From Desulfobacteraceae bacterium (GTDB taxonomy: Bacteria > Desulfobacterota > Desulfobacteria > Desulfobacterales > Desulfosalsimonadaceae), in contig JABZFM010000012.1 in assembly GCA_014237465.1 (NCBI GenBank), positions 1 through 64,000 on the forward strand: 64,000 nucleotides of DNA, read 5' to 3'. The position numbers and the translations under genes were made by a program. The notes below the pieces were generated by a model. The model did not search any database. It worked only from the letters and a program-made list of their open reading frames with translations, and was not told the origin of the DNA. How positions within the stretch are numbered: position 1 is the first letter of the stretch; each line of letters opens with the position of its first letter. This document shows positions 9,109 through 61,806 of the stretch, piece after piece.

Positions 9109-9321
9109 ACGAAATTTTTTGATAAAATACTGAAAGAGTACTGAAAGTATTATAAATAATTTATTTATTATTTTGGGAGGGATGGATTGATGGGTGGAAT
9201 TATAAGATATCGGGATAAGTTAATAACAAATGTTATTATGCGGGATCAGTTGAAAGGCTTTCATGTTTGGAGTGAATCAAAACCGTTGGATAATCTTGGT
9301 GATATCTCCTTCTACAGAAGA

Positions 9322-12300
9322 TTATCTTATGATCAGCGCCGGGTCGCCCAGTAGATTATAAATATCCATCATATAGGGTGGCTTACCAGTTTGGTAATAG
9401 CTTTCAAGGGCTTTCAATACGACATCCCCAAGAATCTTTTCCTCGTCAGTAAAGAGTGAATGGAAGAAGTTTTTATTCAAAATTACTGATAGCTCATTGA
9501 ATGAGAGGCCAGTGGGTGACCATGTGGCTATTGCACCGCCACCTTCATGCAAAACCAACAGTTCAGCTAAAGAATCAAAGCCGGGAATAGCATACCGCCC
9601 CACCACACAGGTCATGGCGGTAACGATAGGAAGTTTTTTATTATTTTCAAGAAAAGCGACATCATTACTTAATAACATGCCTTCCTGGGCCAGGCGGTCG
9701 AGGCCGGCATGGCCCAAATAATTCAAAAGCAAGGCTCCGTCATTGATTTCATCAAGGATTAGCTGATGTGCTTCTTCAATCGGATATTCAGATAAATATA
9801 TCTTCTCCGCCAAGTATTCAGTGGGTAAAATTTCAGCAACTGCATTGCTGGCTGCCGGAAAATCACCCCCATCATCAGGATTATCGGCTACCATGAGAAT
9901 CTTGCGGGCCCAATTGCCATTTGCGCTTTCATATGCCTTTATTTTGTTGATCATTCCGTCAAACTCTTCAGAAGTAACGGCCGGCAGCCGTCCAATGGCA
10001 ATATCCGGAACGCCATCATTATCAAGTACATCCGCATAACGGTTATCTGAGGCAAAAAGCCCGTAAGGGGTAGCGACAAGGGGTGTGGGCACCATGTTGT
10101 CCCCATACCCCATATTGTCTTTATAGTCATATGTGCCAACACCTGCCAGAACCACATATCGGGGAGCCTTTTTCCAATTGTGATATGCAAAAGAGAGGAA
10201 TTCTTTTATGGCTTCCGGGCTGAAAACCCCCTCATTAAATTCATCCATAATCTCTTCAATGTCCACCACCATCGCATCAAGATTTTGGGCCTGCCGGTAA
10301 GCGGCAAGATCCTCAGCCGATTTTTTGAACTCTGAAGGCGCTATGATTAAATAGTCTGCCCGATTCTGTTTTTGTCTCAGGTCGGAGGTGTTATAAGCTG
10401 CAATAGAGAGCGGCGGGTTTGACATATTCTTAGTTGTTGCAAGATATAATATGTCGGAAGCTGCCGGCGTAAAACTTATTTGGTAACCGCTGCCGACATC
10501 TCCAATAACGGCCGCATTAATGATTCGGGGGGTTTTCGGATCCCCCAGATCAAAAACAAGGATGTCGTCACTGGTAAAGCCGGATACGGTGACCACATCG
10601 TGTTCGTCACCACGCAAAAACAACCTGTTATCAACTGCCTGGTAGTAACGCGGGTAAGCCAGATCAAAGGAGTCCACATAAAAGATACTGTAGGGCACGT
10701 CATCATCAAGGAGTCCGGTCACCTCAATGGTGTTTTTACCCTCATTCAAAAGATCCGGGCCAAATTCTAAAACCAGTTCATGGGACGAGGCTCCTGACCA
10801 GTGCCCCTCGCCGATCCATGTCTCATTTAGCGTTACTGAAACATAATGATCATTTTCGTTGTTATTGTCAGTAATCCCCAGAAGATAAACCGTCAGGCGG
10901 GCACTATCTGTTTCAGCCACACTATGTGTCGAAATATTAAAGGTCTTGGTGGAATGATCCGGATTGCCGGAAATAATAAAATCCCACAGCCAGTAATCAG
11001 CCATTGGGTCATCAAACAGGGCGGTTAACGCAAAATGGTCCTCCTCTGCATGAATCGTTTCTTCAAAAGCACCATTCCCAATAGCAGAAAAAGGCTGGTT
11101 TCCCTCAAATTTTATCATTTGCAATCCGTCGTCTTTTTTGCCGATCTTGAGCAAGTAGACATTACGGTCGGTGTAAATGCTGTTGATGGATTCTCCATAA
11201 AAATATATGCCTGCATTTTCGTCGGCACAAAGCCAGGCGATCTCTTTGCCTTGATTGTTTAATATGAATTGCTTTCGCTTGATCCGGCTTGAGACGGTGC
11301 TTGTGGTCTCTCCCATCACATATGCGATCTCGGCGGCATCGACATAGTAAAGACCGTTCTGGGCCACAGAGATTTTGGCTATGTCGCTTTTGGAATACTC
11401 TTTTGAGGCTTTTTTATCTGAATGCATGGCTGCGATTCTATCTTTTTTAGCTTCAGTCATCTGATGGGCGATGCTGCTGTATCCAGATTCGTTAACGATA
11501 TTTTCAGCTTGAAAGAATTTTTCAAAAGCCTCGTCCACAGATTCCCAACCCACAGTGACATTAAAAGGTCCATAGGTATTCTTTTTGCCTCGGTTATCAA
11601 CTTCCACCAGCTTATATGTATACGCCTTGCCTGGCGCTGCGCCTTTGTCCACGCATCGGTAAACCCCGCCCTGGGCTGCATTTAATAGTCCTGGCAGCAA
11701 TTTTTTATTTACCTTGAGGTATCTGCCGGTATCCGGATTGAGCCGGTAGAGGTCAAACCCTACAGTTCCGTTCTCCGTCCCTGTCTGCCATTCGATAAGC
11801 GCGCCCTTGACATGATCAAATGCACGGAAATCTGAAATAAGCGCATAAGTCGGATGAATGACACCGAATGCCTTTATGGCAAAGTTTGCACTCGAATTAT
11901 ATGTATGTAAATCAAACCAACTGGAACCGTCCGGGCCATAAAAGCTTTCCTCCCAGTTGGCTGTGGCTGCGCTTGAGTAGCCAGGGTAAGCATACTCATA
12001 ACTTTGAGGATAACCGTAGCCCGGCGTTGTCAACCCGATCACTACAGAGAAGTAACCTTCGTTAAGCAAGACTATGCTATACCCGGAGGTGGCCAGAGGC
12101 ACTGTTCGATACCCGGGGTATGTGATCGTGCCCGACTGCTCGTGCGCCAGTGTGCCGCTGTCCGGATTATCCGGCGTGACATTAATATATATTCTGATGG
12201 TGTATTCAGTATCTGGCACCTGTGCATAGAATGATACCGCATTGATCACGTGGTCGCTACCAGTGGTATTTTTGAAAATATTAGCACCCCAAAAAACATA

Positions 12301-13341
12301 ATTAGTCCCGCCATACCCTATGGTTCCTATTGCTCCCAAAGGATCATACTGGTATACGTGGTCGTAGTTGTCTGTTGGTTCTGCCAGGAACACGGCGCAA
12401 TTGGTTACAAACGGGTCGTAATAAGAAATCCATAAATATCCGCTGTTGGCCCAGGTTGTGCCCCAACTGTTTTTAATCAAAAAAGCACCGTCACCCGGCG
12501 GCTGATTCGAGCTGATAAAGTTTGTGGCTGAATAGTTATCATCCCATCCGGCAATAGTGACCCCATGGTTTGTGGAAGAACTGGCGCCGTTATAATAGTA
12601 TGCGCCATTGCTGTAATCAAAATAAGGGCTGTCACTAATCTGACTTCCCTCCCATCTCATGCTGGTTCGGAGGGCACCATAGGCCATTATTGCGTTTTTG
12701 ATTTCATCATTCAGAAGAGAACCGCCTCTGTCAGGAATGAAATAAACATCCTGACTATGTTTCTGAATGGTCAGCCCTCCTGGCGAAATGTTGCTAATCG
12801 TACTGTAAGGGTCGTCAATCTCATTGACCGGCCCGCTCCAGCGGGTCAGGTAGGCTGTGGATATTCCCCTGTTGCCGCCGTCGCAGTGTCCCCAGTCAAA
12901 TCCATGGGTGTTTTTCATGTTGTTTTCGGAGAAATTCCAGTTTTCAAAAATCAATTTAAGTAACGTGGACTCAAGGGAACCATAAGCCGCAAAGGCCCAG
13001 CAGCTACCGCAACCGCCCTGATTTTTAACTGAAGTCATTTCTCCCAGGTCATTGAGGTTGTATGAAAGGGGCGCACCTTCTTTAGGAAATGGGAGTTTGA
13101 TGTGCATGCCCTTTGTAAAGGAATAGTCGATCGGTGAAGGTATTTCCCCCAGCCCGAATTCATCTTCCCGTTCGCTGTCGGCTTTAATAAGCCCGGCGGT
13201 TTGCATGTATTGAACGAAAGCCGGGTTCAGGGGGGCGATGGTAGGTTCAGGGTCCGCAGCATCAACATTGCTCCCCCATATGGTTAAAATCAGTAAGCTT
13301 AAATAAAACAAGCAATTCAACGTAAAGGCCCTTTGCTTCAT
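9322..13341 (-). CDS. Secreted dual cysteine protease: papain-like C1 domain fused to gingipain-like C25 domain
   Basis: A 1339-residue exported protein. Residues 1-29 are a signal peptide. A papain-type C1 domain spans about 95-320 with Gln108, Cys114 (QGGCGSCW), His259 (TNHGV) and Asn291 (KNSWG). About 330-495 is a beta-rich stretch, and about 500-600 resembles a fibronectin-III-like module (EWQTGTENGTVGFDLYR). About 640-980 is another beta-rich region like the segment found before C25 domains. The C-terminal 350 residues form a C25 (gingipain-like) catalytic domain with His1211 (NYLGHAG) and Cys1245 (TAMTCVVG), ending NLLGDPALIIR as in that family. Both active sites look intact. The two folds belong to unrelated protease clans (CA and CD). 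AAGGA precedes the ATG. It is monocistronic. It may degrade extracellular protein or process cell-surface proteins; the biological target is unknown. Confidence 0.9.
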   Translation of the reverse strand: MKQRAFTLNCLFYLSLLILTIWGSNVDAADPEPTIAPLNPAFVQYMQTAGLIKADSEREDEFGLGEIPSPIDYSFTKGMHIKLPFPKEGAPLSYNLNDLGEMTSVKNQGGCGSCWAFAAYGSLESTLLKLIFENWNFSENNMKNTHGFDWGHCDGGNRGISTAYLTRWSGPVNEIDDPYSTISNISPGGLTIQKHSQDVYFIPDRGGSLLNDEIKNAIMAYGALRTSMRWEGSQISDSPYFDYSNGAYYYNGASSSTNHGVTIAGWDDNYSATNFISSNQPPGDGAFLIKNSWGTTWANSGYLWISYYDPFVTNCAVFLAEPTDNYDHVYQYDPLGAIGTIGYGGTNYVFWGANIFKNTTGSDHVINAVSFYAQVPDTEYTIRIYINVTPDNPDSGTLAHEQSGTITYPGYRTVPLATSGYSIVLLNEGYFSVVIGLTTPGYGYPQSYEYAYPGYSSAATANWEESFYGPDGSSWFDLHTYNSSANFAIKAFGVIHPTYALISDFRAFDHVKGALIEWQTGTENGTVGFDLYRLNPDTGRYLKVNKKLLPGLLNAAQGGVYRCVDKGAAPGKAYTYKLVEVDNRGKKNTYGPFNVTVGWESVDEAFEKFFQAENIVNESGYSSIAHQMTEAKKDRIAAMHSDKKASKEYSKSDIAKISVAQNGLYYVDAAEIAYVMGETTSTVSSRIKRKQFILNNQGKEIAWLCADENAGIYFYGESINSIYTDRNVYLLKIGKKDDGLQMIKFEGNQPFSAIGNGAFEETIHAEEDHFALTALFDDPMADYWLWDFIISGNPDHSTKTFNISTHSVAETDSARLTVYLLGITDNNNENDHYVSVTLNETWIGEGHWSGASSHELVLEFGPDLLNEGKNTIEVTGLLDDDVPYSIFYVDSFDLAYPRYYQAVDNRLFLRGDEHDVVTVSGFTSDDILVFDLGDPKTPRIINAAVIGDVGSGYQISFTPAASDILYLATTKNMSNPPLSIAAYNTSDLRQKQNRADYLIIAPSEFKKSAEDLAAYRQAQNLDAMVVDIEEIMDEFNEGVFSPEAIKEFLSFAYHNWKKAPRYVVLAGVGTYDYKDNMGYGDNMVPTPLVATPYGLFASDNRYADVLDNDGVPDIAIGRLPAVTSEEFDGMINKIKAYESANGNWARKILMVADNPDDGGDFPAASNAVAEILPTEYLAEKIYLSEYPIEEAHQLILDEINDGALLLNYLGHAGLDRLAQEGMLLSNDVAFLENNKKLPIVTAMTCVVGRYAIPGFDSLAELLVLHEGGGAIATWSPTGLSFNELSVILNKNFFHSLFTDEEKILGDVVLKALESYYQTGKPPYMMDIYNLLGDPALIIR

Positions 13342-13715
13342 GTAATAAAATCCTTTCTGGTAATTCAGACACTTGTATTATTTGAATATCATGAATTTTT
13401 TAGTCAAGAAAAACAAATTTGGGGATACCGTGACGAAGATAATGATTTTTATTTATATTTGCAGAAAAATCAAAAGTGTAATTTCTAAATAGGTTCAGTC
13501 ATTAAAAACATCCATGTTTTTCTAAAAGATATTGTATGCATAAACGTAATGAATATCAAGATAATCATATCGCAATGAGTTGTAATCAATCACACAAAGT
13601 AAATCATTGACAACCGCCGGGCTGGCTGATATTTTTATTAACCATTTAAAGTTATAACTAATTGAATTTATGTATTTTTTGTTAATCAAAACCATTTCAC
13701 CAATGGAGGTTTCCC
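13342..13715. other. Divergent intergenic region, protease / selenoprotein
   Basis: A 374-bp AT-rich gap between divergently transcribed genes. A good plus-strand promoter is described separately at 13607. No convincing minus-strand promoter was found for the protease; a TTGACT lies about 60 bp upstream of its start but the -10 match is poor. No gene was recognised. Confidence 0.5.
13607..13635 (+). promoter_or_regulatory. Candidate sigma70 promoter of the selenoprotein gene
   Basis: TTGACA (13607-13612), a 17-nt spacer, then TATTTT (13630-13635). The -35 is perfect and the -10 matches 4 of 6. It would give a leader of roughly 75 nt before the GTG start at 13716. Confidence 0.45.
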
Positions 13716-13943
13716 GTGGAATCAAAAATTCATATTTATGGAAAGTCGACATGACCGTTTACCAATGCAGCTCGTGAAGCTTACGCAAAGAAGGATGCTG
13801 AAGTTGAGTATATTGATGTTTTGGCAAATGATGAGAATATGGAATCCATGCTTAAATTCTCGGACGGCAGCCGAAGAGTACCCGTCATTGTTGACGGAGA
13901 AAAGATCGCCATTGGTTTCAACGGCCGGAGCTGACGTGTTTAG
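13716..13943 (+). CDS. Double-selenocysteine glutaredoxin-like protein (UXX-star family)
   Basis: A 75-residue protein missed by ordinary gene calling because it contains two in-frame TGA codons: Sec13 (13752-13754) and Sec73 (13932-13934), ending at TAG 13941-13943. Read through, it gives a small thioredoxin/glutaredoxin fold. Strand 1 is KIHIYGKST, the active site is T-U-P-F-T, then helix NAAREAYAKK, EVEYIDVLAN, and the cis-Pro region RRVPVIVDGEK, followed by IAIGFNGRS-U-RV. This matches my memory of the UXX-star (seleno)protein family, whose members carry Sec or Cys in the first motif and often a second near the C-terminus. The start is GTG with GGAGG six bases upstream. Each TGA is followed by a SECIS-like hairpin whose loop begins exactly 18 nt downstream. 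A thiol/selenol redox role is inferred. It needs SelA, SelB, SelC and SelD from elsewhere in the genome. Confidence 0.88.
13752..13787 (+). promoter_or_regulatory. Candidate bacterial SECIS element for Sec13
   Basis: After the UGA there is an 11-nt spacer, then a 5' arm TGCAGCT (13766-13772), loop CGTGA (13773-13777), and a 3' arm AGCT (13778-13781) plus GCA (13785-13787) with a 3-nt bulge. The loop begins 18 nt after the UGA and has G as its second base, as expected for SelB-recognised bacterial SECIS hairpins. Confidence 0.6.
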
Positions 13944-31418: not shown

Positions 31419-31450
31419 AATAGCAGTTGAGCTTTTTACGAAGCCATCAT
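31393..31450. repeat. Family B repeat fragment
   Basis: Matches 4603-4660 of the family B element (GGCTGCCGCGCAACCC, AGCAGTTGAGCTTTTTACGA, AGCCATCA) with roughly one base in five changed. Only the right half is present. It replaces the 3' end of the nuclease-like gene and touches the stop of the AICAR transformylase gene. Confidence 0.7.
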
Positions 31451-32700
31451 CAATGTTTAAAGCTGCGCTGACCGGTAAGTACCATGGTCACATTCGCTTC
31501 ATTACAGGCTTCAATGGACTGGTAATCATTTAAAGATCCGCCGGGCTGTACAACGGCGGAAACCCCTTCCTGGATACCCACATCAATGCCGTCCCTGAAC
31601 GGAAAGAACGCGTCACTGACCATGGTGGCACCGATCAGGCCGCCTTTTTCCGAATTCACCCGGCTGTTAATTGCCGCTTTTTTGTCTTCATCGATGAGGT
31701 CATTATAGGAAATACCGTGGGATTCAAAGCAGTAGCGGTCACCCAGTTTTCGGTACGCTTTATCCCTGGCAATCTCGGCCACGCCCACGCGGTCCTGTTC
31801 ACCGGTACCAATGCCCACCGACACACCGTCTTTCACATAGATAACGGAATTGGATGTGATGCCGGACTCTAAAAGCCAGCCAAAACGGATATCCGCGTAT
31901 TCCTGTTCAGTGGGCGGACGGTTGATGACGTATTCCCTGTCTTGAAATTCGCATCGGGCCAGGGCAAAATCGGAACTGTCAAGGGATTGGGGGACGAAAG
32001 ACCATTGCGCCACAATACCGCCGTCGATCAGGTTTTTAAATTCCACCACCCGCTGCCCGACAAATGTGTTCAGGTTGGAAATATTTTTAATCCGGATGAC
32101 CCGTAAGTTTTTCTTTTGGGCAAGAATTTTCATTGCGCCGTCTTCAAAATCAGGGGCGACCACCACTTCGGCATATTGCCCGGCAATAGATTCCGCGGTT
32201 GGTTTGTCGATGGGGCGATTGACGGCAATGCATCCGCCAAAGGCGGCCACGCGGTCTGCCATGTAGGCCTTGTGGTACGCATTTTCAAGGGAATCGGATA
32301 TGGCGGCGCCGCAGGGATTGTTGTGCTTGACGATAATGACCGCCGGCTGGTCGGAAAAATATCTGAGAATGTTTAAAGCGTTATCCGCATCCGTCAGGTT
32401 TGTTTTTCCCGGATGCTTTCCGGACTGCAGCAGTTCAATGTCAGATACCAGGTACTGGCCGGGCTGGATGGTTTCCGTTTGCCCCAGAATCAGGTTCCCG
32501 TTGATCAGGCGGTACAAAGCGGCCTCCTGGCCCGGGTTTTCTCCATACCGAAGCCCTTTACGGATATTATCGATGGTCCAGTCGGCTTTTTCATAAAAAA
32601 GGGTTTGTCGCAGACCGCCGTCCACAAAGCTGATTTCCATTTGCGGCGGGAAATGATCATCCATAATGGTCTTATACATCTGTTTTAAATCTTTGCTCAT
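31450..32700 (-). CDS. purH: AICAR formyltransferase (stand-alone PurH C-terminal domain)
   Basis: A 416-residue phosphoribosylaminoimidazolecarboxamide formyltransferase, corresponding to the C-terminal domain of bifunctional PurH. Conserved parts are LRYGENPGQEAALY, VIVKHNNPCGAA, AYMADRVAAFGGCIAVNRP, KDGVSVGIGTGEQDRVG and SDAFFPFRDGID. It transfers the formyl group of 10-formyl-THF to AICAR, the step before IMP closure. The cyclohydrolase half is a separate gene upstream (32896), separated by a 195-bp gap carrying a repeat. Both halves look complete, so this is a split, not a broken, PurH. Confidence 0.9.
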   Translation of the reverse strand: MSKDLKQMYKTIMDDHFPPQMEISFVDGGLRQTLFYEKADWTIDNIRKGLRYGENPGQEAALYRLINGNLILGQTETIQPGQYLVSDIELLQSGKHPGKTNLTDADNALNILRYFSDQPAVIIVKHNNPCGAAISDSLENAYHKAYMADRVAAFGGCIAVNRPIDKPTAESIAGQYAEVVVAPDFEDGAMKILAQKKNLRVIRIKNISNLNTFVGQRVVEFKNLIDGGIVAQWSFVPQSLDSSDFALARCEFQDREYVINRPPTEQEYADIRFGWLLESGITSNSVIYVKDGVSVGIGTGEQDRVGVAEIARDKAYRKLGDRYCFESHGISYNDLIDEDKKAAINSRVNSEKGGLIGATMVSDAFFPFRDGIDVGIQEGVSAVVQPGGSLNDYQSIEACNEANVTMVLTGQRSFKH

Positions 32701-32806
32701 TTTTTTAACTCCTCAAAATCTGGAAGTCTGGTTTCTGTTTCGATTAGCGATATCGACGTCATCCAGAGTTTTTAAACTGGTTCTTGGTATGCGTGTCAAT
32801 CAGTTT

Positions 32807-32891
32807 GGTGCATGGAATGCACCCTACGATGGTTCAATTTGTTGGCATCGTCCCCTGCGGTATCTGGCTTGTGGGGTGCATTTTATGCACC
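32807..32891. repeat. GGTGCAT inverted repeat between the two PurH genes
   Basis: GGTGCATGGAATGCACCCTAC at the left (32807-32827) and GTGGGGTGCATTTTATGCACC at the right (32871-32891) form inverted arms around about 43 nt. It is related to the GGTGGATTA repeat at 19643. It separates two genes that are normally one. Confidence 0.6.
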
Positions 32892-32895
32892 TTAT

Positions 32896-33684
32896 TCAAA
32901 TGATTTCCGGGTAGCACGACCTAACATCTGAGATTGACCGGCTGCCGAGATAATCCGCAATTGCCCGGTCATAATCCGCTGTGTGGGAAAAAGCTTTTTG
33001 CGCCAAACGGAAACGGGTTTCAAGGGTGGTCATTCCCTCATTCAATGCGAGTTCCGCCAGGATGGTGTCATAATTTTTTGGGTCCACCACGGATGCGACG
33101 CGCAGGCAGTTTTTGGCCGATGCCCGGATCATGCAGGGGCCGCCGATATCAATATTTCCCCGGGCCATTTCAGGGGTAACGCCGTCCTTTTTAATTGTTT
33201 CTTCAAAAGGATACAGGTTAACGATGACCATATCAATGGGGCTGGCATCGGTCCGTTTCAGGTCTTTTTGATGAGAGGCATTATATGTTTCAGTGAGAAT
33301 GCCTAAATAAATCTTAAAATCAAGGGTTTTGACAAGCCCGCCCTTGGTTTCCGGCTGGCCCGTGTAATCCGATACCTGTGTCAGAGCCTTGGCTGACGCA
33401 CTCCCGAGGATTTCCTTGATTTTATTATACGTTCCCCCGGTGGACAGAATTTTGATATCAGGGTTGATTTTTACAAGGCCGGGGACCAATGTCTCAAGAC
33501 CGGATTTGTCTGAAACACTGATCAAAACGGTTTGTACTTTTACAAGGTTGTCTATTTTTTCAACAAAGTTAATTCCCATAAGCGAAATAAACACCGGATT
33601 TTTCCTTGCATGAGAAATGCGGGTTAAATTTGAATATCCGGTAATTCCTCCTTTTTTTGGTTTGATGGATTCAAAAAAAGTCAT
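32896..33684 (-). CDS. purH: IMP cyclohydrolase (stand-alone PurH N-terminal domain)
   Basis: A 262-codon frame holding the MGS-like inosine monophosphate cyclohydrolase domain. Signatures are TVLISVSDKSGL, ILSTGGTYNKIKE, HPLHGGL-region equivalent KGGLVKTLDFKIYLGIL, DMVIVNLYPFEETI, the family motif GNIDIGGPCMIRASAKN and VVDPKNYD. It closes FAICAR to IMP, the last step of purine synthesis. Residues 1-35 may not be translated: an ATG at 33579 (MGINFVEKIDN) fits the family N-terminus better, and neither start has a clear ribosome site. Confidence 0.88.
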   Translation of the reverse strand: MTFFESIKPKKGGITGYSNLTRISHARKNPVFISLMGINFVEKIDNLVKVQTVLISVSDKSGLETLVPGLVKINPDIKILSTGGTYNKIKEILGSASAKALTQVSDYTGQPETKGGLVKTLDFKIYLGILTETYNASHQKDLKRTDASPIDMVIVNLYPFEETIKKDGVTPEMARGNIDIGGPCMIRASAKNCLRVASVVDPKNYDTILAELALNEGMTTLETRFRLAQKAFSHTADYDRAIADYLGSRSISDVRSCYPEII

Positions 33685-50605: not shown

Positions 50606-51547
50606 ATGGCTTATCGACATATACCCGTGATGCTTAATGAAGTAATGGCATATCTGGATTGCAAGCCGGGAAAATGCTATGTGGACTGTACGGTCGGCGG
50701 CGCAGGTCATTCCAGTGCAATACTGGAAAAGATAAAGCCGGATGGATTGTTAATCGGAATTGACCAGGATGCAGACGCAATTCAAAATGCAATACAGGTG
50801 CTTACGCCGGATGTTTCAAACGTTCGCCTGATTCATGATAATTATGTCAACCTCCCGAATATCCTTTCACAATTAAATATCTGCAAGGTCGATGGCATCA
50901 TTGCAGACCTCGGCCTTTCATTCAATCAGATTGAAAACAGTGGGCGCGGTTTCAGTTTCCAGAAGTCTGAGCCCCTCGATATGAGAATGGATGCCGGTTC
51001 CGGCATTACCGCGGCAGATATTGTCAATAACGAGACTCAGGAAGATCTTGAAAGAATTTTCAAAAGCTACGGAGAGGAACGATGGGCAAGAAAGATTGCC
51101 CGTCGGATCGTTACCGTACGAATCGGTCAAAGAATACGAACCAGTACGGATCTGGCTGAAATTGTTTGCGACGCGATCCCGAAGCGGTCGTTGCATCAAC
51201 GCCGGAAACATCCTGCCACAAAAGTATTCATGGCCCTTCGCATTGCAGTTAACAAAGAACTGGAAGTCCTGGAATCGTTTATGGCGGGTGCTGTAGACTT
51301 TTTGAACCCCGGCGGGAGGATATGTTTCCTGTCTTTTCATTCCCTCGAAGATCGTATTGTAAAAAGACAATTCAAGGACCTGGAGGGTAAATGCACCTGT
51401 CCGCCGGATTTTCCGAAATGTGTCTGCGATCAGAAACAAATTATCAGGATTTTGACCCGTAAAGTGGTTCGTCCGACAGAAGAAGAAGTTAATATCAATC
51501 CAATGGCAAGAAGTGCATGTTTGAGAGCCGCGGAAAAGGTGGGGTAG
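50606..51547 (+). CDS. rsmH: 16S rRNA (cytosine(1402)-N4)-methyltransferase RsmH
   Basis: A 313-residue methyltransferase that modifies C1402 of 16S rRNA. Hallmarks are HIPVMLNEVMAYLD, VDCTVGGAGHS (AdoMet loop), GIDQDADAI, DGIIADLGLSFNQIE and PTATKVFMALRIAVN-like RHPATKVFMALRIAVN and CFLSFHSLEDRIVKR. The length is standard. It follows mraZ by 4 bp and is part of the dcw operon. Confidence 0.97.
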   Translation: MAYRHIPVMLNEVMAYLDCKPGKCYVDCTVGGAGHSSAILEKIKPDGLLIGIDQDADAIQNAIQVLTPDVSNVRLIHDNYVNLPNILSQLNICKVDGIIADLGLSFNQIENSGRGFSFQKSEPLDMRMDAGSGITAADIVNNETQEDLERIFKSYGEERWARKIARRIVTVRIGQRIRTSTDLAEIVCDAIPKRSLHQRRKHPATKVFMALRIAVNKELEVLESFMAGAVDFLNPGGRICFLSFHSLEDRIVKRQFKDLEGKCTCPPDFPKCVCDQKQIIRILTRKVVRPTEEEVNINPMARSACLRAAEKVG

Positions 51548-51596
51548 CCGGCGGGGCGGCTCATGGTATTGTGGTATTTATGATAGGGGGAATATC

Positions 51597-51788
51597 ATGG
51601 TTAAATTAAAAGTCTTTTTTGTGATGGGAATTGTGGTCTCCGTACTTATCCTGTGCGCGCTTGCGCCGGGTATATGTTTTGACCGGTTTGTGCTGCCGGA
51701 CGGCTGCTGCACGGGTTGTATTGAGTCGTCATCTTTATGCTGCACCGACTGTATTGTCGAAGAAGGCAAAAGCTGTGCATGCCGATAA
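51597..51788 (+). CDS. Small cysteine-rich membrane-anchored protein
   Basis: 63 residues with a hydrophobic N-terminal segment (FFVMGIVVSVLILCALAPG) that could be a signal anchor. The following part has nine cysteines: Cys27, then CCTGC (37-41), CCTDC (48-52) and CAC (60-62), so CCxxC is repeated 11 residues apart. A Cys also lies in the membrane segment. AGGGGGA precedes the ATG by six bases. It lies between rsmH and ftsL in the same direction, where dcw clusters usually have nothing. I know no homologue. A metal- or redox-binding role in the periplasm is only a guess. The gene is short but has a proper ribosome site, and its position keeps it in the operon. Confidence 0.68.
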   Translation: MVKLKVFFVMGIVVSVLILCALAPGICFDRFVLPDGCCTGCIESSSLCCTDCIVEEGKSCACR

Positions 51789-51855
51789 GCCCGGAAAACA
51801 TCTGATCCGGTAGTATTTGCGTTAATTTTCAAAATCATCAAGATAGATTTCGGCA

Positions 51856-52158
51856 ATGAAGTTCAACAGAAAATCAAAACCCAATATATTTACACCGCGA
51901 GTGATTGCGGTGGGTTTTGTTTTTTTATCGGTTTTTATTGTTGAATTTTTTTTTAAAACATGGTGCGGGGTGCAGTGCATTCGAATCGGTTATGAAATCA
52001 CGGACGCAATGAACAAACAGCAGAATTTGATGAATATGCAGAAGAATTTAACCATTGAACTGGTTCATCTCCAGTCGCCACAGGTCCTGATGAAAATTGC
52101 CAAAGAAAAATTTGAACTGACAATCCCGGAACCCGACCAGGTAATTGTTATCCCATGA
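51856..52158 (+). CDS. ftsL: Cell division protein FtsL
   Basis: A 100-residue bitopic protein: basic N-terminus, membrane segment VIAVGFVFLSVFIVEFFF (about 16-33), then a coiled coil (YEITDAMNKQQNLMNMQKNL) and a conserved tail LQSPQVLMKIAKEKFELTIPEPDQVIVIP. It is part of the FtsQLB subcomplex that activates FtsWI. Identification rests mainly on position and architecture. Its stop overlaps the ATG of ftsI. Confidence 0.88.
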   Translation: MKFNRKSKPNIFTPRVIAVGFVFLSVFIVEFFFKTWCGVQCIRIGYEITDAMNKQQNLMNMQKNLTIELVHLQSPQVLMKIAKEKFELTIPEPDQVIVIP

Positions 52159-53933
52159 ACTCGACAAAAGTTGAGCAGCATAGAAATAAACTTAGAAATC
52201 GACGCATCATCGTTATCGGCGGTTTTTTAACTTTTTTGTATGTGGTGGTGGGGATTCAAGCTTTTTATTTGCAGGTCATCGAAGGCGATATTCTTTCCAA
52301 ACGAGCCTCGAAGCAATACCAAAAGTCAATGAAGTGCCAGGGAAAGCGCGGGGCCATATTTGATGCGAATTACCGTGAACTGGCGATCAGCACCAGTGTC
52401 GTTGAAGTCGGTATGCATCCTATGGATGTAAAAAGTAAAGATGAAAAAACGATCCTGAACAAACATAAGTTGTCCGGTGATATCGCCAGGATTCTGAATC
52501 TAAATCAAAACGTTTTGTATAAAAAATTATCCTCAAACAAAAAATTTGTATGGCTTGACCGTAAAGTGACCCCGATGCGGGCAGTGACGCTCAGGTCCCT
52601 GAGGCTGACGGGATTTGAATATGATTCGTCGTATTTGCGGGTTTATCCCTATAAATCACTGGCGGCACAGGTAGTCGGATTTGTGGGGGTTGACGGATAC
52701 GGCCTTGACGGTCTGGAGCAGCACTTTGATGATGAACTGCAGGGAAATCTCCGCCAATGGACGATTATCAAGGACCGGATGGGGCGGATTTTTGACCGCC
52801 GGGAGGCTTGTTCTCCGGGATACGAAGGCAATAATTTAATATTAACCATTGACAGTAACATTCAGTATATCGCTGAAACCGCTTTGCAGAAATCAGTGGA
52901 AGAAAATAATGCCAAGTGCGGTCTTGCCATCGTAATGGCGCCGGAGACCGGTGCGGTGAAAGCCATTGCCCATTATCCGACATATAACCCGAATTCTTTT
53001 AATTCGTTCCCCAGAGATTCCTGGCGCAACAGATCAGTGACAGATACTTTTGAACCGGGGTCTGTTTTGAAAGTTTTTTTGATTGCTGCCGCCCTGGAGT
53101 CCGGTCTGTGTGATCCGGAAATGATCATTAACTGCGAAAGTGGTCAGTACAGAATCGGGCGGAATGTAATCAACGACACGCATTCTTATGATTTTTTGAC
53201 GGTTCACGACGTGCTGAAATATTCAAGTAACATCGGTTCGGTAAAGATAGCAGAGATTATCGGCGCACAGGCCCTTTATGAAATGCTGCTGAATTTCGGA
53301 TTTGGAGAAAAAACCGGAATTAACTGTCCGGGTGAAGTAAAGGGTCTTTTAAGACATTTTCAGGGGTGGAAAAAAATTGATAATGCCACCATTTCTTTTG
53401 GTCAGGGTATTACCGTTACGCCCATCCAGCTTATTACGGCTATTTCCGCAGTCGCCAACCACGGGGTATTGATGACGCCTTATGTTGTCCAGGCGATTAC
53501 TGATGAAAACGGGAATATTATAAAAAACTTCAACCCCAGTGAGAAACGAAAAGTGATTATGCCCGAGACTGCCAGAGCTTTGATGCAAATGATGAATGCC
53601 GTAACAGAACCTGATGGGACCGGCGGGCAGGCGGTCCCGGTCGGTTATACGGTATGCGGTAAAACCGGGACCGCCCAGAAGATCAATGCACACGGAACGT
53701 ATCGGAATTGTGAGTATAACGGTGTGTTTGTCGGATTTTCGCCGGCGCAGTCCCCGGAATTGGCGGTATTGGTCGTTATCGACGAACCACAGAAGCATCA
53801 CTACGGGGGAGTCGTGGCAGCACCCGTATTCAGGGAGATCGTTCATGAGACATTTAATTATTTAAATATTCCCCCGAGCACACCCAAAGAACAGTTAAAC
53901 GTTTCCAATGGTGTCGGAGAAGTGGGTGCATGA
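52155..53933 (+). CDS. ftsI: Septal peptidoglycan transpeptidase FtsI (PBP3)
   Basis: A 592-residue class B penicillin-binding protein. A membrane anchor (about 18-37) is followed by the pedestal domain and the transpeptidase domain. The catalytic motifs are SVLK (Ser303), SSN in YSSNIGSVK, and KTG in CGKTGTAQK. It crosslinks peptidoglycan at the septum with FtsW. It overlaps ftsL (4 nt) and murE (4 nt). Confidence 0.96.
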   Translation: MNSTKVEQHRNKLRNRRIIVIGGFLTFLYVVVGIQAFYLQVIEGDILSKRASKQYQKSMKCQGKRGAIFDANYRELAISTSVVEVGMHPMDVKSKDEKTILNKHKLSGDIARILNLNQNVLYKKLSSNKKFVWLDRKVTPMRAVTLRSLRLTGFEYDSSYLRVYPYKSLAAQVVGFVGVDGYGLDGLEQHFDDELQGNLRQWTIIKDRMGRIFDRREACSPGYEGNNLILTIDSNIQYIAETALQKSVEENNAKCGLAIVMAPETGAVKAIAHYPTYNPNSFNSFPRDSWRNRSVTDTFEPGSVLKVFLIAAALESGLCDPEMIINCESGQYRIGRNVINDTHSYDFLTVHDVLKYSSNIGSVKIAEIIGAQALYEMLLNFGFGEKTGINCPGEVKGLLRHFQGWKKIDNATISFGQGITVTPIQLITAISAVANHGVLMTPYVVQAITDENGNIIKNFNPSEKRKVIMPETARALMQMMNAVTEPDGTGGQAVPVGYTVCGKTGTAQKINAHGTYRNCEYNGVFVGFSPAQSPELAVLVVIDEPQKHHYGGVVAAPVFREIVHETFNYLNIPPSTPKEQLNVSNGVGEVGA

Positions 53934-55522
53934 AGCTTTCACGGTTAATAGATCCGATTGAAGTTGTCAGTATTAACTGGCTTTCAATTGATGGGCTTCC
54001 GATTGAAGGGATTTCAGGGGATAAGCGGGATGACGCATTGGACCCTGAAATTGCATCAATCCACTATCGGTCCAATGAAGTGCGTCCGGGTGGGATATTT
54101 TTTGCAATTAAAGGGCAGCAGACAGATGGCCATCAATATATCCGGGATGCAATTAACAGGGGGGCCGCGGCCGTGGTCGTTGAAGCCGGCCATCAGATTG
54201 ATGATGCGGAAGCAGTTGTGGTTTCAGTTGAAAATACCCGAAAGGCGCTGGCTGCCGGTTCATCGATTTTCTTCAATAATCCGTCAGGAAATTTATATTT
54301 GATTGGAATTACAGGAACAAACGGTAAAACGACAACGGCGTATCTTGTCGAGCATCTTCTGCTGGAAAGCGGCATGGATGTCGGTGTGATCAGTACCATT
54401 AATTACCGTTATCAGGGACTGGTCTATAATAACCCGTTGACAACGCCGGAGTCCCTGGATCTTCAGAAAATATTGTCGGAAATGGTGTCTGCCGGGGTAA
54501 CCCATGTCGTCATGGAAGTGTCATCCCATGGCATTGCCCTGGATCGCATATATTACTGCTGGTTTGATATGGGCATCTACACCAACTTGAGCCAGGATCA
54601 CCTGGATTTTCATGGAAATATGGAAGAATACGGGTCTTGTAAAAAAAGATTTTTTACCGGTTATTTAATGGCAGGTCCTAAGCAAAAGCATGCCGTTGCG
54701 GTCATCAACACGGACAACCCTATGGGAATGGAGATTTTAAGCGCAATGGAAAATTTCAAGGTCGTCTCCGTGGGGTCGAATGCATCAAGCGATGTCTTTG
54801 CCCGGCACATTCGGTTTGATCAGTATGGCATGAGCGGCGAGATCCGGTTTCCGGATAAAGGGGTACAATTCCAATCCGGTTTAATTGGAAGTTATAATCT
54901 TGAAAATATCATGTGTGCGGCAGGAGCCGGCATGGCGCTGAAGATTTCTCCTGCATTAGTAAAACAAGGCATTGACTCGTTTGCATATGTTCCTGGTCGA
55001 CTGGAACGTATTCCCGATGAATCCGGCCGGCACGTGTTTTTGGATTATGCCCATACCCCCGACGCACTGGAAAATGTTTTATCCACCTTAAAAGAAGTCA
55101 TTGCCGGACGTCTGATCTGCGTTTTCGGATGCGGGGGAGACCGGGATAAGGCAAAACGGCCCCAAATGGGAAAAATTGCGGGCAAATTAAGTGATTTTGT
55201 GGTGATTACGTCCGATAACCCTCGGACAGAAGTCCCGGGAGTCATTATTGAAGAAATCCGCAATGGGGTAATGGCCGTTTTACAGAAGGAATACATGACG
55301 TCTGAACTTGAAAATAGATTTCCGGAAAATGGGTATGTCATCGAACCGGATCGGGAAAGAGCGATTAACTTAGGTATCAAAATTGCTAAACCGGATGACA
55401 CGATATTAATTGCCGGTAAAGGGCATGAAGATTATCAGATCATCGGCAAAAAAATCATCCCGTTTGATGACAGGGAGAAGGCCACAGCCGCGTTGGCCAA
55501 ATCTTTACTGAAAGTAAATTAA
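53930..55522 (+). CDS. murE: UDP-N-acetylmuramoyl-tripeptide synthetase MurE (m-DAP type)
   Basis: A 530-residue Mur ligase. The ATP loop is GITGTNGKTTTAY, the central domain has THVVMEVSSHGIALDR, and the C-terminal domain has DNPR (about 429-432), the meso-diaminopimelate recognition motif. It adds the third residue of the stem peptide. The N-terminal about 25 residues are longer than in E. coli. It is coupled to ftsI and murF by overlaps. Confidence 0.95.
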   Translation: MKLSRLIDPIEVVSINWLSIDGLPIEGISGDKRDDALDPEIASIHYRSNEVRPGGIFFAIKGQQTDGHQYIRDAINRGAAAVVVEAGHQIDDAEAVVVSVENTRKALAAGSSIFFNNPSGNLYLIGITGTNGKTTTAYLVEHLLLESGMDVGVISTINYRYQGLVYNNPLTTPESLDLQKILSEMVSAGVTHVVMEVSSHGIALDRIYYCWFDMGIYTNLSQDHLDFHGNMEEYGSCKKRFFTGYLMAGPKQKHAVAVINTDNPMGMEILSAMENFKVVSVGSNASSDVFARHIRFDQYGMSGEIRFPDKGVQFQSGLIGSYNLENIMCAAGAGMALKISPALVKQGIDSFAYVPGRLERIPDESGRHVFLDYAHTPDALENVLSTLKEVIAGRLICVFGCGGDRDKAKRPQMGKIAGKLSDFVVITSDNPRTEVPGVIIEEIRNGVMAVLQKEYMTSELENRFPENGYVIEPDRERAINLGIKIAKPDDTILIAGKGHEDYQIIGKKIIPFDDREKATAALAKSLLKVN

Positions 55523-56937
55523 TGGATGAAATTTTCTGGACAATTGATGAAATCATAAAAGCCACGGGCGGGGAACTCCTGGCCGGAAAGGGCTTGCCCC
55601 GTTTTACGAGCATTTCGATTGATTCCAGAAATATTTCAAAAAATGATCTGTTCGTGGCGGTAAAAGGTCAAACCCACGACGGCCACCAGTTTATCGAAGA
55701 TGTTATTGAAAAGGGTGTCCAGGGCATAGTGATTGATCGGGAAAAATTCAGCCAGGCCTTTCAAACCGGGATATCAAATGACGTCTGCTGTATTCTGGTG
55801 GATGATACAATTCGGGCGCTGGGTGATCTGGCTATGTTTCACCGGCGGCGGTTTTCCATCCCGGTAGTTTGTATCACCGGCTCAAATGGTAAAACAACAA
55901 CCAAGGAGATGACGGCTTCGGTCCTGGGGCAAAAATTTAACACTCTTAAAACCGTGGGCAATTTAAATAATGAATTCGGTGTCCCGCTAACGATTTTCCG
56001 GATGAATCATTCCCATGAAGCAGCGGTTTTGGAGCTTGGAATGAACCACCCCGGTGAAATCCGTCGTCTTTCAGAAATCTGCCGTCCGGATTTAGGTGTC
56101 ATTACAAATATTGGAGAAGCACACCTTGAGGGCCTGGGCAGTATCGCGAATGTCATGTCCGCCAAAGGTGAGTTGATTGAAAATATCAAACAAGACGGCG
56201 GGATTATATTAAATGGTGATGATACCTACAGCTTGAGGCTCGGCGGCACAGCCAGCCGGAAGGTATCCTATTTTGGCCAGTCGATTTACGCTGATATCCG
56301 GGCGATAGATATTGCAAAAAAAGAAAACACAACGGTTTTTACCCTGGAACTGCCCAATGAGAAAATTTCAGTCAAGATCAATGCGCCCGGTCAGTTCATG
56401 GTATTAAATGCCCTGGCCGCATCTGCCGTCGGATATTTGACCGGTCTCAGCGCCACAGAAATAAAAACGGGTATCGAGACATTCAGGCCGCTAAAAGGCC
56501 GTATGGATATAAAAGAAAGCCGGCGGGGATTTTTCATTATTGACGATTCTTATAATGCCAACCCCGGTTCCATGGAAGCGGCCATAAAAACCCTGGTATC
56601 GTTAAAAGGTCAGAAAAAAGGGGCTTTGGTGGCAGGGGACATGCTTGAACTGGGCAGGAATGCCCAACGCTTACATGAAAGTATCGGACAGGTCGCTGCC
56701 CAGTCAGGGGTTAACAGGCTTTTCCTGACTGGGAATTATGTAAATGCCGTGAAAAAAGGGGCGCAACACCAGGGTATGCCGGATCAGGATATCATCATCG
56801 GTGATAAAACGGAACTGGTGGAATCATTGGTCGAATTTCTCTGTCCAAAAGACTGGGTTCTGGTGAAAGGCTCAAGAGGGGCGGGAATGGAAGAAATTGT
56901 AAAACAGCTGGAGGCAACCGATGCACCGGCCGCGTAA
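55522..56937 (+). CDS. murF: UDP-N-acetylmuramoyl-tripeptide--D-alanyl-D-alanine ligase MurF
   Basis: A 471-residue Mur ligase with CITGSNGKTTTKEM as the ATP loop, VGNLNNEFGVPLT, LELGMNHPGEIRRLS and the MurF motif IIDDSYNANPGSMEAA. It adds D-Ala-D-Ala to the tripeptide. Its ATG shares one base with the murE stop (TAATG). Confidence 0.96.
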   Translation: MDEIFWTIDEIIKATGGELLAGKGLPRFTSISIDSRNISKNDLFVAVKGQTHDGHQFIEDVIEKGVQGIVIDREKFSQAFQTGISNDVCCILVDDTIRALGDLAMFHRRRFSIPVVCITGSNGKTTTKEMTASVLGQKFNTLKTVGNLNNEFGVPLTIFRMNHSHEAAVLELGMNHPGEIRRLSEICRPDLGVITNIGEAHLEGLGSIANVMSAKGELIENIKQDGGIILNGDDTYSLRLGGTASRKVSYFGQSIYADIRAIDIAKKENTTVFTLELPNEKISVKINAPGQFMVLNALAASAVGYLTGLSATEIKTGIETFRPLKGRMDIKESRRGFFIIDDSYNANPGSMEAAIKTLVSLKGQKKGALVAGDMLELGRNAQRLHESIGQVAAQSGVNRLFLTGNYVNAVKKGAQHQGMPDQDIIIGDKTELVESLVEFLCPKDWVLVKGSRGAGMEEIVKQLEATDAPAA

Positions 56938-57014
56938 TTGTTTGAAGCTTTTTTCTGTCCATTTGAATCTGATTTTTTACAGGATCATCAAGTTTATATT
57001 GTTTGGATATTTTA

Positions 57015-58094
57015 ATGTTTTATCATCTTTTTAATATGCTGCAGCCGGAAATTACGGTTTTAAACGTATTTCGATATATTACGTTTAGAACCATATGCGC
57101 CAGCTTAACTGCCCTGATGATCTGTTTTGTGTTCGGTCCATGGGTGATCCGCTTGCTCGGAGAAAAGCAGATCGGCCAGTTTATCCGGAAAGTCGGACCG
57201 GAAAGCCATCAGGATAAAGCCGGCACGCCCACCATGGGCGGCGTGATGATTCTTCTGGCAATCTTTGTGTCAGTCATTCTGTGGGTTGATTTAACCAATT
57301 TATACATATGGATTATCTTATTTGTAGGCGCCGGTTATTTTGCAATTGGCTTTGCCGATGATTACTTAAAGCAGATTCAGAAACGGAACAGGGGATTAAG
57401 CGCCCAGGCCAAGTTCTGTCTGCAGATCCTGATTGCCGCCATTGCCGGGGGCATGATTTATGTTTACCCGGAATTTAACACCCAGGTCACAGTTCCTTTT
57501 TTTAAAAGTATCACACCGGATCTGGGTCCGGGCTATATCATCTTTGCAATCCTGGTGATTGTGGGGGCTTCCAATGCGGTTAATTTAACGGATGGCCTTG
57601 ACGGTCTAGCGATCGGCCCCGTAATCATTGCTGCGGCAACATACATGCTGTTTGCCTATGTGACGGGACACATTAAAATCGCGCAGTATCTTCAGATCAA
57701 CTATCTGGCCGGTTGCGGCGAGGTGACGATCATATGCGGGGCCATGGCCGGGGCCGGGCTCGGGTTCTTATGGTACAACACGTATCCGGCACAGATTTTC
57801 ATGGGAGATGTGGGATCTCTGCCCCTGGGCGCTCTGCTGGGAATTATTGCCGTGATTACCAAACATGAAATCCTGCTGGTCATTGTGGGCGGAATATTTG
57901 TGATCGAAGCGCTGTCGGTGATTTTGCAGGTGGGGTATTTCAAGCTGACAAAAGGGCAGCGGATTTTTTTAATGGCGCCCCTGCATCACCATTTTGAATT
58001 AAAAGGATGGGCGGAGTCCAAGGTGATTGTCCGGTTCTGGATTATCGCCATTATTCTGGCGCTGATTTCGATCAGTACGCTTAAACTGAGATAG
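57015..58094 (+). CDS. mraY: Phospho-N-acetylmuramoyl-pentapeptide transferase MraY
   Basis: About 359 residues with ten membrane segments. Signatures are [27 protein letters not shown], the catalytic Asp pair in [33 protein letters not shown] and [12 protein letters not shown]. It makes lipid I by moving phospho-MurNAc-pentapeptide onto undecaprenyl phosphate. I start at ATG 57015, where the family N-terminus (MFYHLFNML) begins; a TTG four codons earlier is possible. A 77-bp gap separates it from murF, the largest in the front part of the cluster. Confidence 0.95.
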
Positions 58095-58108
58095 GTGGCA
58101 TTGATTTA

Positions 58109-59470
58109 ATGGATTTGAGAAATAAACATATACTGGTGGTTGGACTGGGAAAATCTGGAACATCCGTGGCCAAATTTTTGATCAGCCGGGGATGCACGGT
58201 CACCGTGGCGGATAACCGCAGAGAAGACGCGCTTGGCGATGTGCTGTCTGAAATCAGAAGCCTCGGAATTACTATTGAGCTGGGTCCCCATGATTCTAAA
58301 ATCTTTGAAAATAGCGATCTTATCGTGCTGAGCCCCGGGGTGCCGCACACGATAGAGCCGGTGAATCGGGCCAGGCAAAAAGATATACCTGTGATCGGAG
58401 AAATCGAACTGGCGTATCATTTTATTAATATACCGATTATCGCCGTCACCGGCACCAACGGGAAATCGACCACAACACTACTGCTCGGGGAGATGCTGAA
58501 TCATTCCGGTTTTAAAGCGCTGACCGGCGGGAATCTCGGAACACCCTTAATTGAACTGGTCGACCAACAGGAAACAGCGGATTTCATTGTCGCGGAAATC
58601 AGCAGTTTTCAGCTCGATACCATTGAAAAATTCAGACCGTTGGTAAGTATCATATTGAATATTACTGATGATCATCTGGACCGGTACCCGGACTTTGATG
58701 CGTATGCCCGTTCCAAGGCCGGAGTTTTTAAAAACCAGACAGCAAATGATGTCTGTGTGTTAAATGAAAAAGACGCAACCATCCTGTCAGTTTCAGAGAA
58801 TCTGACCGCCCGGCGGTTTGCGTTTAATTGCCGGCAGTTTAATGAATACAGAGCATGGATATCGGAACAAACAATCTGCTTTCATACACCGGATGATGGT
58901 GATCAGCATGTGGACTGTACAGATATTCCCCTGACCGGTCGCCATAATCTTGAAAATGCGTCAGCTGCGGGTCTTGCGGTTCTGGCCGTCGGCGGCACCA
59001 TTTCCGGAATTAAAGATGCTTTGCAGAATTTTAAAGGCCTGTCCCACCGGGAGGAATATGTGGACACCGTCAACAGCGTTCAATTTTATGATGATTCAAA
59101 GGCCACCAACGTGGATGCGGTGGCAAGGGCGCTGGAATCATTTTCTTCACCGGTTGTGCTGATTATGGGCGGGCGAGACAAGGGCGGCGGGTATGAAAGT
59201 CTGAGGTCCCGGGTCGCCCAATGCGTTAAACAGTTGATTGTCATAGGGGAAGCCGCAGGAAAAATAAAAACCGTGTTTGAGGATATGGTACCGACAGTAA
59301 TGGCGGCGGACATGGCTCAGGCGGTGAAAATGGCGGTTTCGTATGCAGATCCCGGTGATTCGGTACTGCTGTCGCCCGCTTGTTCAAGTTTTGATATGTA
59401 CGACAGTTACGCCCAGCGGGGCAGGGATTTTGCGCAATCGGTTGACCAGTTAAAAAGTGGAGCTCAATGA
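58109..59470 (+). CDS. murD: UDP-N-acetylmuramoylalanine--D-glutamate ligase MurD
   Basis: A 453-residue Mur ligase: N-terminal VVGLGKSGTSVAKFL, ATP loop AVTGTNGKSTTTLLLGEML, AEISSFQLDTIEKFRP, ILNITDDHLDRY and the C-terminal DDSKATN and ILIMGGRDKGG-type VLIMGGRDKGG. It adds D-Glu to UDP-MurNAc-L-Ala. It overlaps ftsW by 4 nt. Confidence 0.96.
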   Translation: MDLRNKHILVVGLGKSGTSVAKFLISRGCTVTVADNRREDALGDVLSEIRSLGITIELGPHDSKIFENSDLIVLSPGVPHTIEPVNRARQKDIPVIGEIELAYHFINIPIIAVTGTNGKSTTTLLLGEMLNHSGFKALTGGNLGTPLIELVDQQETADFIVAEISSFQLDTIEKFRPLVSIILNITDDHLDRYPDFDAYARSKAGVFKNQTANDVCVLNEKDATILSVSENLTARRFAFNCRQFNEYRAWISEQTICFHTPDDGDQHVDCTDIPLTGRHNLENASAAGLAVLAVGGTISGIKDALQNFKGLSHREEYVDTVNSVQFYDDSKATNVDAVARALESFSSPVVLIMGGRDKGGGYESLRSRVAQCVKQLIVIGEAAGKIKTVFEDMVPTVMAADMAQAVKMAVSYADPGDSVLLSPACSSFDMYDSYAQRGRDFAQSVDQLKSGAQ

Positions 59471-61781: not shown

Positions 61782-61806
61782 TATTTAATAACAGCTGAGA
61801 GTATTT

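What the first reader, a model, noticed from the sequence alone, without database searches (positions are those of the whole stretch)
9322..13341. Two unrelated cysteine proteases in one secreted polypeptide
A papain-type (clan CA, C1) domain with Cys114/His259/Asn291 and a gingipain-type (clan CD, C25) domain with His1211/Cys1245 are fused in 1339 residues behind a signal peptide. Both catalytic sets are intact by eye. The combination could allow one domain to activate or process the other. I do not know a characterised protein with this pairing.
Basis: partly seen in the sequence, partly recalled or inferred. Interest (0 to 1): 0.72.

Follow-up and report, generated by a model that had tools for sequence, protein, structure and literature searches.

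The report
Two-headed secreted cysteine protease
One secreted bacterial protein carries two unrelated protein-cutting enzymes, each with its active-site residues in place; it joins two known building blocks, and other bacteria of the same order have joined the same two enzyme types independently.

Summary
The N-half resembles C. difficile Cwp84. The C-half resembles the type IX sortase PorU in sequence and predicted fold, but misses the PorU model cut-off and stops where the C25 domain ends. Catalytic Q108/C114/H259/N291 and H1211/C1245 are in register with both families.

The gene is a one-gene gain between the UXX-star glutaredoxin and HPr genes. All 7 same-genus genomes examined have the empty site, and 0 of 10 have the C1-lectin half. 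No other C1-lectin-C25 protein turned up among 78 GTDB loci or 15 Lectin_like-bearing genomes of 395. C1 and C25 do share one frame in four other genomes of the order: three with C1-Fn3-propeptide-C25, one with C25-C1-C13 lacking the C25 Cys and C1 His. Trees of both domains reject a common origin for the window fusion and the first of these types.

Best reading: a shuffled, secreted bifunctional endopeptidase acting on extracellular or envelope protein. Cross-activation is possible but has no specific support. A new variant of a known kind.

The parts
9322..13341 (-). Whole gene, 1339 aa, C1 - Lectin_like - Fn3-like - PorU-like N-region - C25
13258..13341 (-). Putative Sec signal peptide (residues 1-28, cut near VDA|AD)
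   Evidence: by eye; no predictor available
13090..13257 (-). Short Cwp84-like propeptide region (residues about 29-84), with conserved 'P..P.F' and 'G..P' positions
   Evidence: conserved columns in A1; boundary inferred
12424..13053 (-). Peptidase_C1 domain, residues 97-306; catalytic Q108 (13018-13020), C114 (13000-13002), H259 (12565-12567), N291 (12469-12471)
11866..12357 (-). Lectin_like domain (PF18560), residues 329-492; Cwp84 calcium ligands Glu448 and Asn487 correspond to E449 and N486
   Evidence: ligand names from PMC4089489 passages
11542..11853 (-). Fn3-like beta domain, residues about 497-600, shared with many other secreted proteins of the lineage
   Evidence: partial matches; strands in the model; no Pfam match, name inferred
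11377..11541 (-). Low-confidence linker with 9 Lys/Arg in residues 600-656
   Evidence: low pLDDT; composition
10417..11376 (-). PorU-like beta region in front of C25, residues about 656-975
   Evidence: NCBIfam PorU models start at residue 720; Foldseek match to 6za2 over 815 columns
9334..10353 (-). Peptidase_C25 domain, residues 997-1336; catalytic H1211 (9709-9711), C1245 (9607-9609); the protein ends 3 residues later
9190..13593 (.). Stretch absent from the same place in relatives (about 4.4 kb, this one gene)
   Evidence: edges good to about 25 bases against L157 and L158

Best explanation
A Sec-exported, two-headed cysteine endopeptidase made by domain shuffling. A Cwp84-like block (short propeptide, papain-type C1, calcium-type lectin-like domain) was joined in frame, at a domain boundary (492/497), to a block that circulates in this lineage (Fn3-like, linker, PorU-like region, C25). 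Shown: the fused ORF, the domains, the catalytic residues, the absence of the gene from the same place in relatives, and the independence from the other main fusion type. Inferred: export; autocatalytic loss of the C1 propeptide as in Cwp84; both sites active and cutting protein outside the inner membrane, with the lectin-like and Fn3-like parts holding substrate or surface; the two sites working side by side on shared substrates rather than one switching on the other.
For: Three Pfam domains far above cut-off in one open frame. Catalytic residues conserved on both sides. N291 keeps the papain Asn where Cwp84 itself has Ser, and E449/N486 keep two calcium ligands. C-half model (mean pLDDT 81) finds PorU 6za2 first (E 1e-29) and gingipain R next (E 4e-18). 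Each half occurs with other partners: C1-lectin relatives with other or no tails, C25 block 44% identical over 497-1339 on a 1937-aa protein of the same genome. The fused gene fills a clean empty site. C1 and C25 have been joined more than once, which fits some benefit in having both in one secreted chain.
Against: No activity, secretion or processing evidence. No orthologue of the fusion was found, so selection on the two sites could not be measured. The conserved GHG after the C25 His reads GHA here. The C1 half could not be modelled (mean pLDDT 49). No partner genes suggest a substrate: the neighbours are HPr, PTS enzyme I-like, SmpB (these named by eye), a UXX-star selenoprotein and a LOG-type protein. 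Type C (L174) pairs C1 and C25 with catalytic residues lost, so pairing does not imply two active sites.
Confidence: 0.6

Rival explanations
1. Activation in cis: the C1 domain cuts the linker near 600-655, or an inhibitory contact, and so releases or switches on the C25 half (or the reverse).
For: A low-confidence, Lys/Arg-containing linker lies between the halves. In the independent type B fusions a Propeptide_C25 sits between C1 and C25, where C1 could remove it. Gingipains free themselves by cutting off an N-terminal propeptide (PMC5445135 passage).
Against: This protein has no Propeptide_C25; the same linker region exists in relatives without C1; the Cwp84 S2-pocket Asp320 falls in a gap of the alignment, so a Lys preference cannot be carried over.
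Confidence: 0.17
2. A PorU-like sortase or surface-protein maturase: the C25 half trims or transfers surface proteins as PorU does, and the C1-lectin half matures them as Cwp84 does.
For: NCBIfam PorU models cover 720-1336; best PDB fold match PorU; Cwp84 cleaves the S-layer protein SlpA (PMC4089489 passages).
Against: 279.5 bits against a PorU cut-off of 420; the protein ends at the C25 boundary whereas the 1156-residue PorU chain goes on well past its matched part, which ends at 783; no recognisable substrate gene next to it. The type IX system is described as found only in some Bacteroidetes (start of the abstract of PMC5445135) and was not searched for in this genome.
Confidence: 0.1
3. 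A recently acquired gene with no settled role, or with only one working head.
For: Found in one genome only; 0 of 10 other same-genus genomes have the C1-lectin half; 7 of 7 examined have the empty site. Type C shows a pair with lost catalytic residues.
Against: No stop, frameshift or lost catalytic residue in 1339 codons; base composition like the window (46.3 against 45.0% G+C).
Confidence: 0.1
4. Assembly or binning artefact joining two genes.
For: Only one genome carries it; the assembly has 70 contigs.
Against: Both flanks are syntenic with relatives in one contig; the halves meet in frame at a domain boundary; similar composition in both halves (47.7 and 45.5%).
Confidence: 0.03

Closest known systems
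Cwp84, S-layer-associated C1A peptidase of Clostridium difficile (PDB 4ci7, 4d59)
   Same: Propeptide, C1 and lectin-like domain in the same order; phmmer 83-492 against 4ci7, E 2e-35; catalytic Gln/Cys/His and two calcium ligands in register
   Different: No cell-wall-binding repeats (none found by Pfam); keeps the papain Asn where Cwp84 has Ser; carries a C25 half instead
PorU, type IX secretion sortase (PDB 6za2)
   Same: C25 core plus the beta region in front of it; best fold match and best sequence match of the C-half
   Different: Below the PorU equivalog cut-off; lacks everything after C25; has Fn3-like, lectin-like and C1 parts in front
Gingipain R / RgpB (PDB 1cvr, 4ief), family C25
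   Same: C25 His and Cys aligned; fold match TM 0.66 to the target
   Different: No Propeptide_C25 found and no room for the Ig-like domain that follows C25 in gingipains (recalled); C1-lectin half in front
C1-Fn3-Propeptide_C25-C25 proteins of the same order (L153, L154, L173)
   Same: C1 and C25 in one frame, N- to C-terminal, both catalytic sets present
   Different: No Lectin_like domain; C25 with its own propeptide; C1 and C25 lie in other branches of both trees for L153 and L154 (L173 not in the trees)
Paralogue on contig 62 of the same genome (L027, 1937 aa)
   Same: 44% identical over residues 497-1339
   Different: Other N-terminus (Lamin Tail Domain); followed by a small precursor-like ORF, a PqqD-like and a radical SAM gene

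Membership tests
Peptidase family C1 (papain) | Pfam PF00112 above the curated cut-off | tested here: met
   87.1 bits, cut-off 20.7
Peptidase family C1 (papain) | Gln-Cys-His-Asn catalytic set in register | tested here: met
Cwp84-like C1-lectin proteins | Lectin_like PF18560 directly after C1 | tested here: met
   126.8 bits, cut-off 27; window C1 falls in the lectin-type clade, SH-aLRT 100
Cwp proteins of C. difficile | cell-wall-binding repeats | tested here: not met
   no such Pfam match with E up to 1
Peptidase family C25 (gingipain) | Pfam PF01364 above the curated cut-off | tested here: met
   291 bits, cut-off 23
Peptidase family C25 (gingipain) | catalytic His and Cys in register | tested here: met
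Gingipains proper | C25 propeptide, and an Ig-like domain after C25 | tested here: not met
   no PF08126 match; the protein ends 3 residues after C25
T9SS sortase PorU | NCBIfam equivalog cut-off | tested here: not met
   279.5 of 420 bits; PorU2 model 182.2 of 450
T9SS sortase PorU | type IX secretion genes in the genome | not tested
Secreted protease | functional signal peptide | not testable with these tools
   plausible by eye only

The most novel reading that the evidence does not exclude
Putting a papain-type and a gingipain-type protease in one secreted chain is a recurrent solution in this bacterial order: it arose at least twice from different parts because the first enzyme licenses the second (removing or opening the C25 pro-region), giving a self-contained proteolytic cascade in one molecule.
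Probability: 0.17. Interest if true: 0.62.

Novelty: new variant of a known kind. Interest (0 to 1): 0.42.

Why it matters
Proteases of clans CA and CD are usually studied as separate enzymes. Repeated joining of both in one secreted protein, from different C1 and C25 stock, makes it testable whether the second protease serves activation, complementary specificity or a shared anchor. [quoted passage not shown] Sediment microbes are described as using secreted peptidases, gingipain-type ones among them (papers seen only as search listings), so a two-in-one enzyme may matter ecologically.

Tried and rejected
Tried and of little use: structure prediction of residues 28-734 (mean pLDDT 49; not used). 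Search for terminal or target-site repeats around the inserted gene (nothing convincing). PqqD/radical SAM partners for this gene: the genome has PqqD only on contigs 62 and 51, none in the window. Plasmids: 8 records match one half only, none covers 80%. A survey of another phylum could not be set up. A script looking for more precursor peptides stopped on an error after one hit and was not rerun.

Considered and rejected: misassembly (flanks syntenic); one origin for the window fusion and type B (AU p 5e-4 for C25; p 2e-5 for C1); filing it as PorU (cut-off not met); filing it as a Cwp (no wall-binding repeats).
Full report
WHAT IS THERE. The ORF at 9322-13341 lies on the minus strand and encodes 1339 residues from ATG. 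Pfam finds Peptidase_C1 at 97-306, Lectin_like at 329-492 and Peptidase_C25 at 997-1336, all far above their cut-offs. By sequence the N-half matches Cwp84 of Clostridium difficile (83-492, E 2e-35). The C-half matches PorU (E 8e-14) and gingipain R (E 5e-9). A model of residues 495-1339 from a 14-row alignment has mean pLDDT 81; against the PDB it finds PorU first (E 1e-29, 815 columns, TM 0.47 on the query) and RgpB next (E 4e-18, TM 0.66 on the target). NCBIfam's PorU model covers 720-1336 with 279.5 bits, below its cut-off of 420. The protein stops three residues after the C25 match, so the parts that follow C25 in PorU are missing.

CATALYTIC RESIDUES. C1: Q108, C114, H259 and N291 are invariant in the 10-row alignment A1. 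A1 holds the window and 9 of the other sequences found; masked, partial or distant ones were left out. In a wider set of 72 rows these positions hold Q 70, C 70, H 71 and N 72. Against Cwp84, C114 pairs with the mutated Cys116, H259 with His262 and Q108 with Gln110. N291 pairs with a Ser of Cwp84, which fits the statement that Asn287 of Cwp84 is not in the active site (PMC4089489, passages). The calcium ligands Glu448 and Asn487 correspond to E449 and N486; Asp320 of the Cwp84 S2 pocket falls in a gap. C25: H1211 and C1245 are invariant in 14 rows, hold in 33 and 31 of 33 rows and align with the His and Cys of PorU and RgpB. One deviation: the usual GHG reads GHA.

BOTH HALVES ARE MODULES. In the same genome the C1 and Lectin_like domains occur once each, both in this gene, while C25 occurs four times. 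The paralogue on contig 62 is 44% identical over 497-1339 and has another N-terminus. In 40 relatives (the window genome included), 23 genomes match some part of the protein, but none except the window genome matches its whole length. Lectin_like occurs in 15 of 395 genomes of the phylum. The C1-lectin homologues fetched from these carry other tails such as Fn3 or DUF4214-like sequence, or none (tail names by eye). A GTDB scan with A1 kept the best 80 of 576 relatives, giving 78 loci; no C1-lectin frame there contains C25, and one locus (L136) has a separate C25 frame on the other strand.

GENE GAIN. In the own family the C1-lectin half matches 2 of 36 genomes: the window's own, and one weak 71-residue hit. 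None of the 10 other same-genus genomes has it. I fetched the orthologous place from 7 of those 10. In all 7, HPr is followed by the UXX-star/LOG or LOG gene with no protease gene between. Sequence similarity stops near 13593-13597 and resumes at about 9162-9190 (9115 in the shorter L159, L162 and L163 alignments), so about 4.4 kb holding this one gene replaces a short spacer: 106 bases in L157, 81 in L158. Composition gives no foreign signal (46.3% against 45.0% G+C), and no convincing flanking repeats were seen. Gain in the window lineage is more economical than repeated loss. The donor is unknown.

HOW WIDESPREAD IS THE PAIRING. C25 is in 49 of 395 genomes of the phylum. Of 71 genomes with a C25 hit or a hit to this protein, 25 have C1, and in three both lie in one frame: G000 (window), G075 and G406. 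In the order, 100 of 389 genomes have C1. I tested 70 of these 100 for C25, leaving out 30 whose listed C1 frames were short; 27 of 70 have C25 and five have both in one frame: the three above, G533 and G494 (read, whose match list is cut). Pfam on the fetched ORFs confirms this. Type B (L153, L154, L173): C1 - Fn3-like repeats - Propeptide_C25 - C25 - cadherin-like, with catalytic residues present. Type C (L174): C25 - C1 - Fn3 - C13, with the C25 Cys aligned to Ala, the C1 His to Leu and the Gln to Leu. The window is a third architecture. In a 70-row C1 tree (70 of 111 harvested rows, quick method) the window falls in the lectin-type clade (SH-aLRT 100) and type B in a non-lectin clade (100); a joint clade is rejected (AU p 2e-5). 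In a 31-row C25 tree the window lies in the large group that holds the surface-protein C25s and other C25s of the phylum, type B with a Bacteroidota sequence (100/99); a joint clade is rejected (AU p 5e-4). L173 and L174 were not in the trees. So C1 and C25 were joined at least twice.

WHAT IT DOES. Shown: one open frame with two catalytic sets, a gene absent from the same place in relatives, and independent origins. Inferred: Sec export, propeptide removal as in Cwp84, and extracellular or envelope proteolysis by two heads side by side. Cross-activation is the main rival. It has a plausible cut site (a low-pLDDT linker with 9 Lys/Arg in 600-656) but nothing that ties the linker to the C1 domain. 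No genetic neighbour hints at a substrate.

LITERATURE. Papers seen: PMC4089489 (passages), PMC10380794 (passages: it names one solved multidomain prokaryotic C1A peptidase, the lectin fusion), PMC5445135 (abstract start; passages). All others were seen as listings. Searches for a C1-C25 fusion found none. These cover open-licence PMC papers only, and term searches can miss it.

VERDICT. It is a new domain combination of known families with convergent counterparts, not a new kind of system.

Noticed in passing
L027 3399-6000 (own genome, contig 62); also L030-L033, L036-L038: The nearest C25 relatives sit in large surface-type proteins directly followed by a PqqD-like and a radical SAM/SPASM gene: 8 of 12 C25 loci fetched with flanks (a ninth, L034, has both genes divergently). 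In L027 a 65-aa precursor-like ORF ending '...EEVLAIGCKMFDSGINVAQSTNCGIVNNCVTYGS' and an ORF that looks by eye like an HPr-kinase-type ATPase complete what looks like a RiPP cluster. No radical SAM or PqqD model reached its cut-off (two of the loci). A C25 protease tied to a radical SAM peptide system deserves its own study.
   Followed up: partly
window 13716-13934 (+), TGA at 13752-13754: UXX-star selenoprotein family 1 (glutaredoxin-like, NF041114, 102.8 bits, cut-off 72) with an in-frame TGA read as selenocysteine. The TGA is seen at the same place in 4 of 7 relatives by a simple pattern search.
   Followed up: partly
L174 2048-7234 (-): One 1729-aa frame holds C25, C1 and C13 domains, three cysteine peptidase families, with the C25 Cys and the C1 His and Gln missing in alignment.
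   Followed up: partly
L153 3302-8320, L154 4649-11635, L173 2026-8439: An independent C1-Fn3-Propeptide_C25-C25 fusion in three genomes of two other families of the order; L153 is cut by the contig end.
   Followed up: yes
window 31450-33684 (-): PurH is encoded as two pieces (MGS plus start of AICARFT, then the rest) separated by four in-frame stops. Probably two separate genes; not compared with relatives.
   Followed up: no
window 50606-63192 (+): Cell-division/wall cluster (mraW, PBP, Mur ligases, FtsW, MurG-like) in the usual order.
   Followed up: no
L136: A Bacteroidota contig with a C1-lectin gene and a separate, opposite-strand C25 fragment of the type B branch.
   Followed up: no
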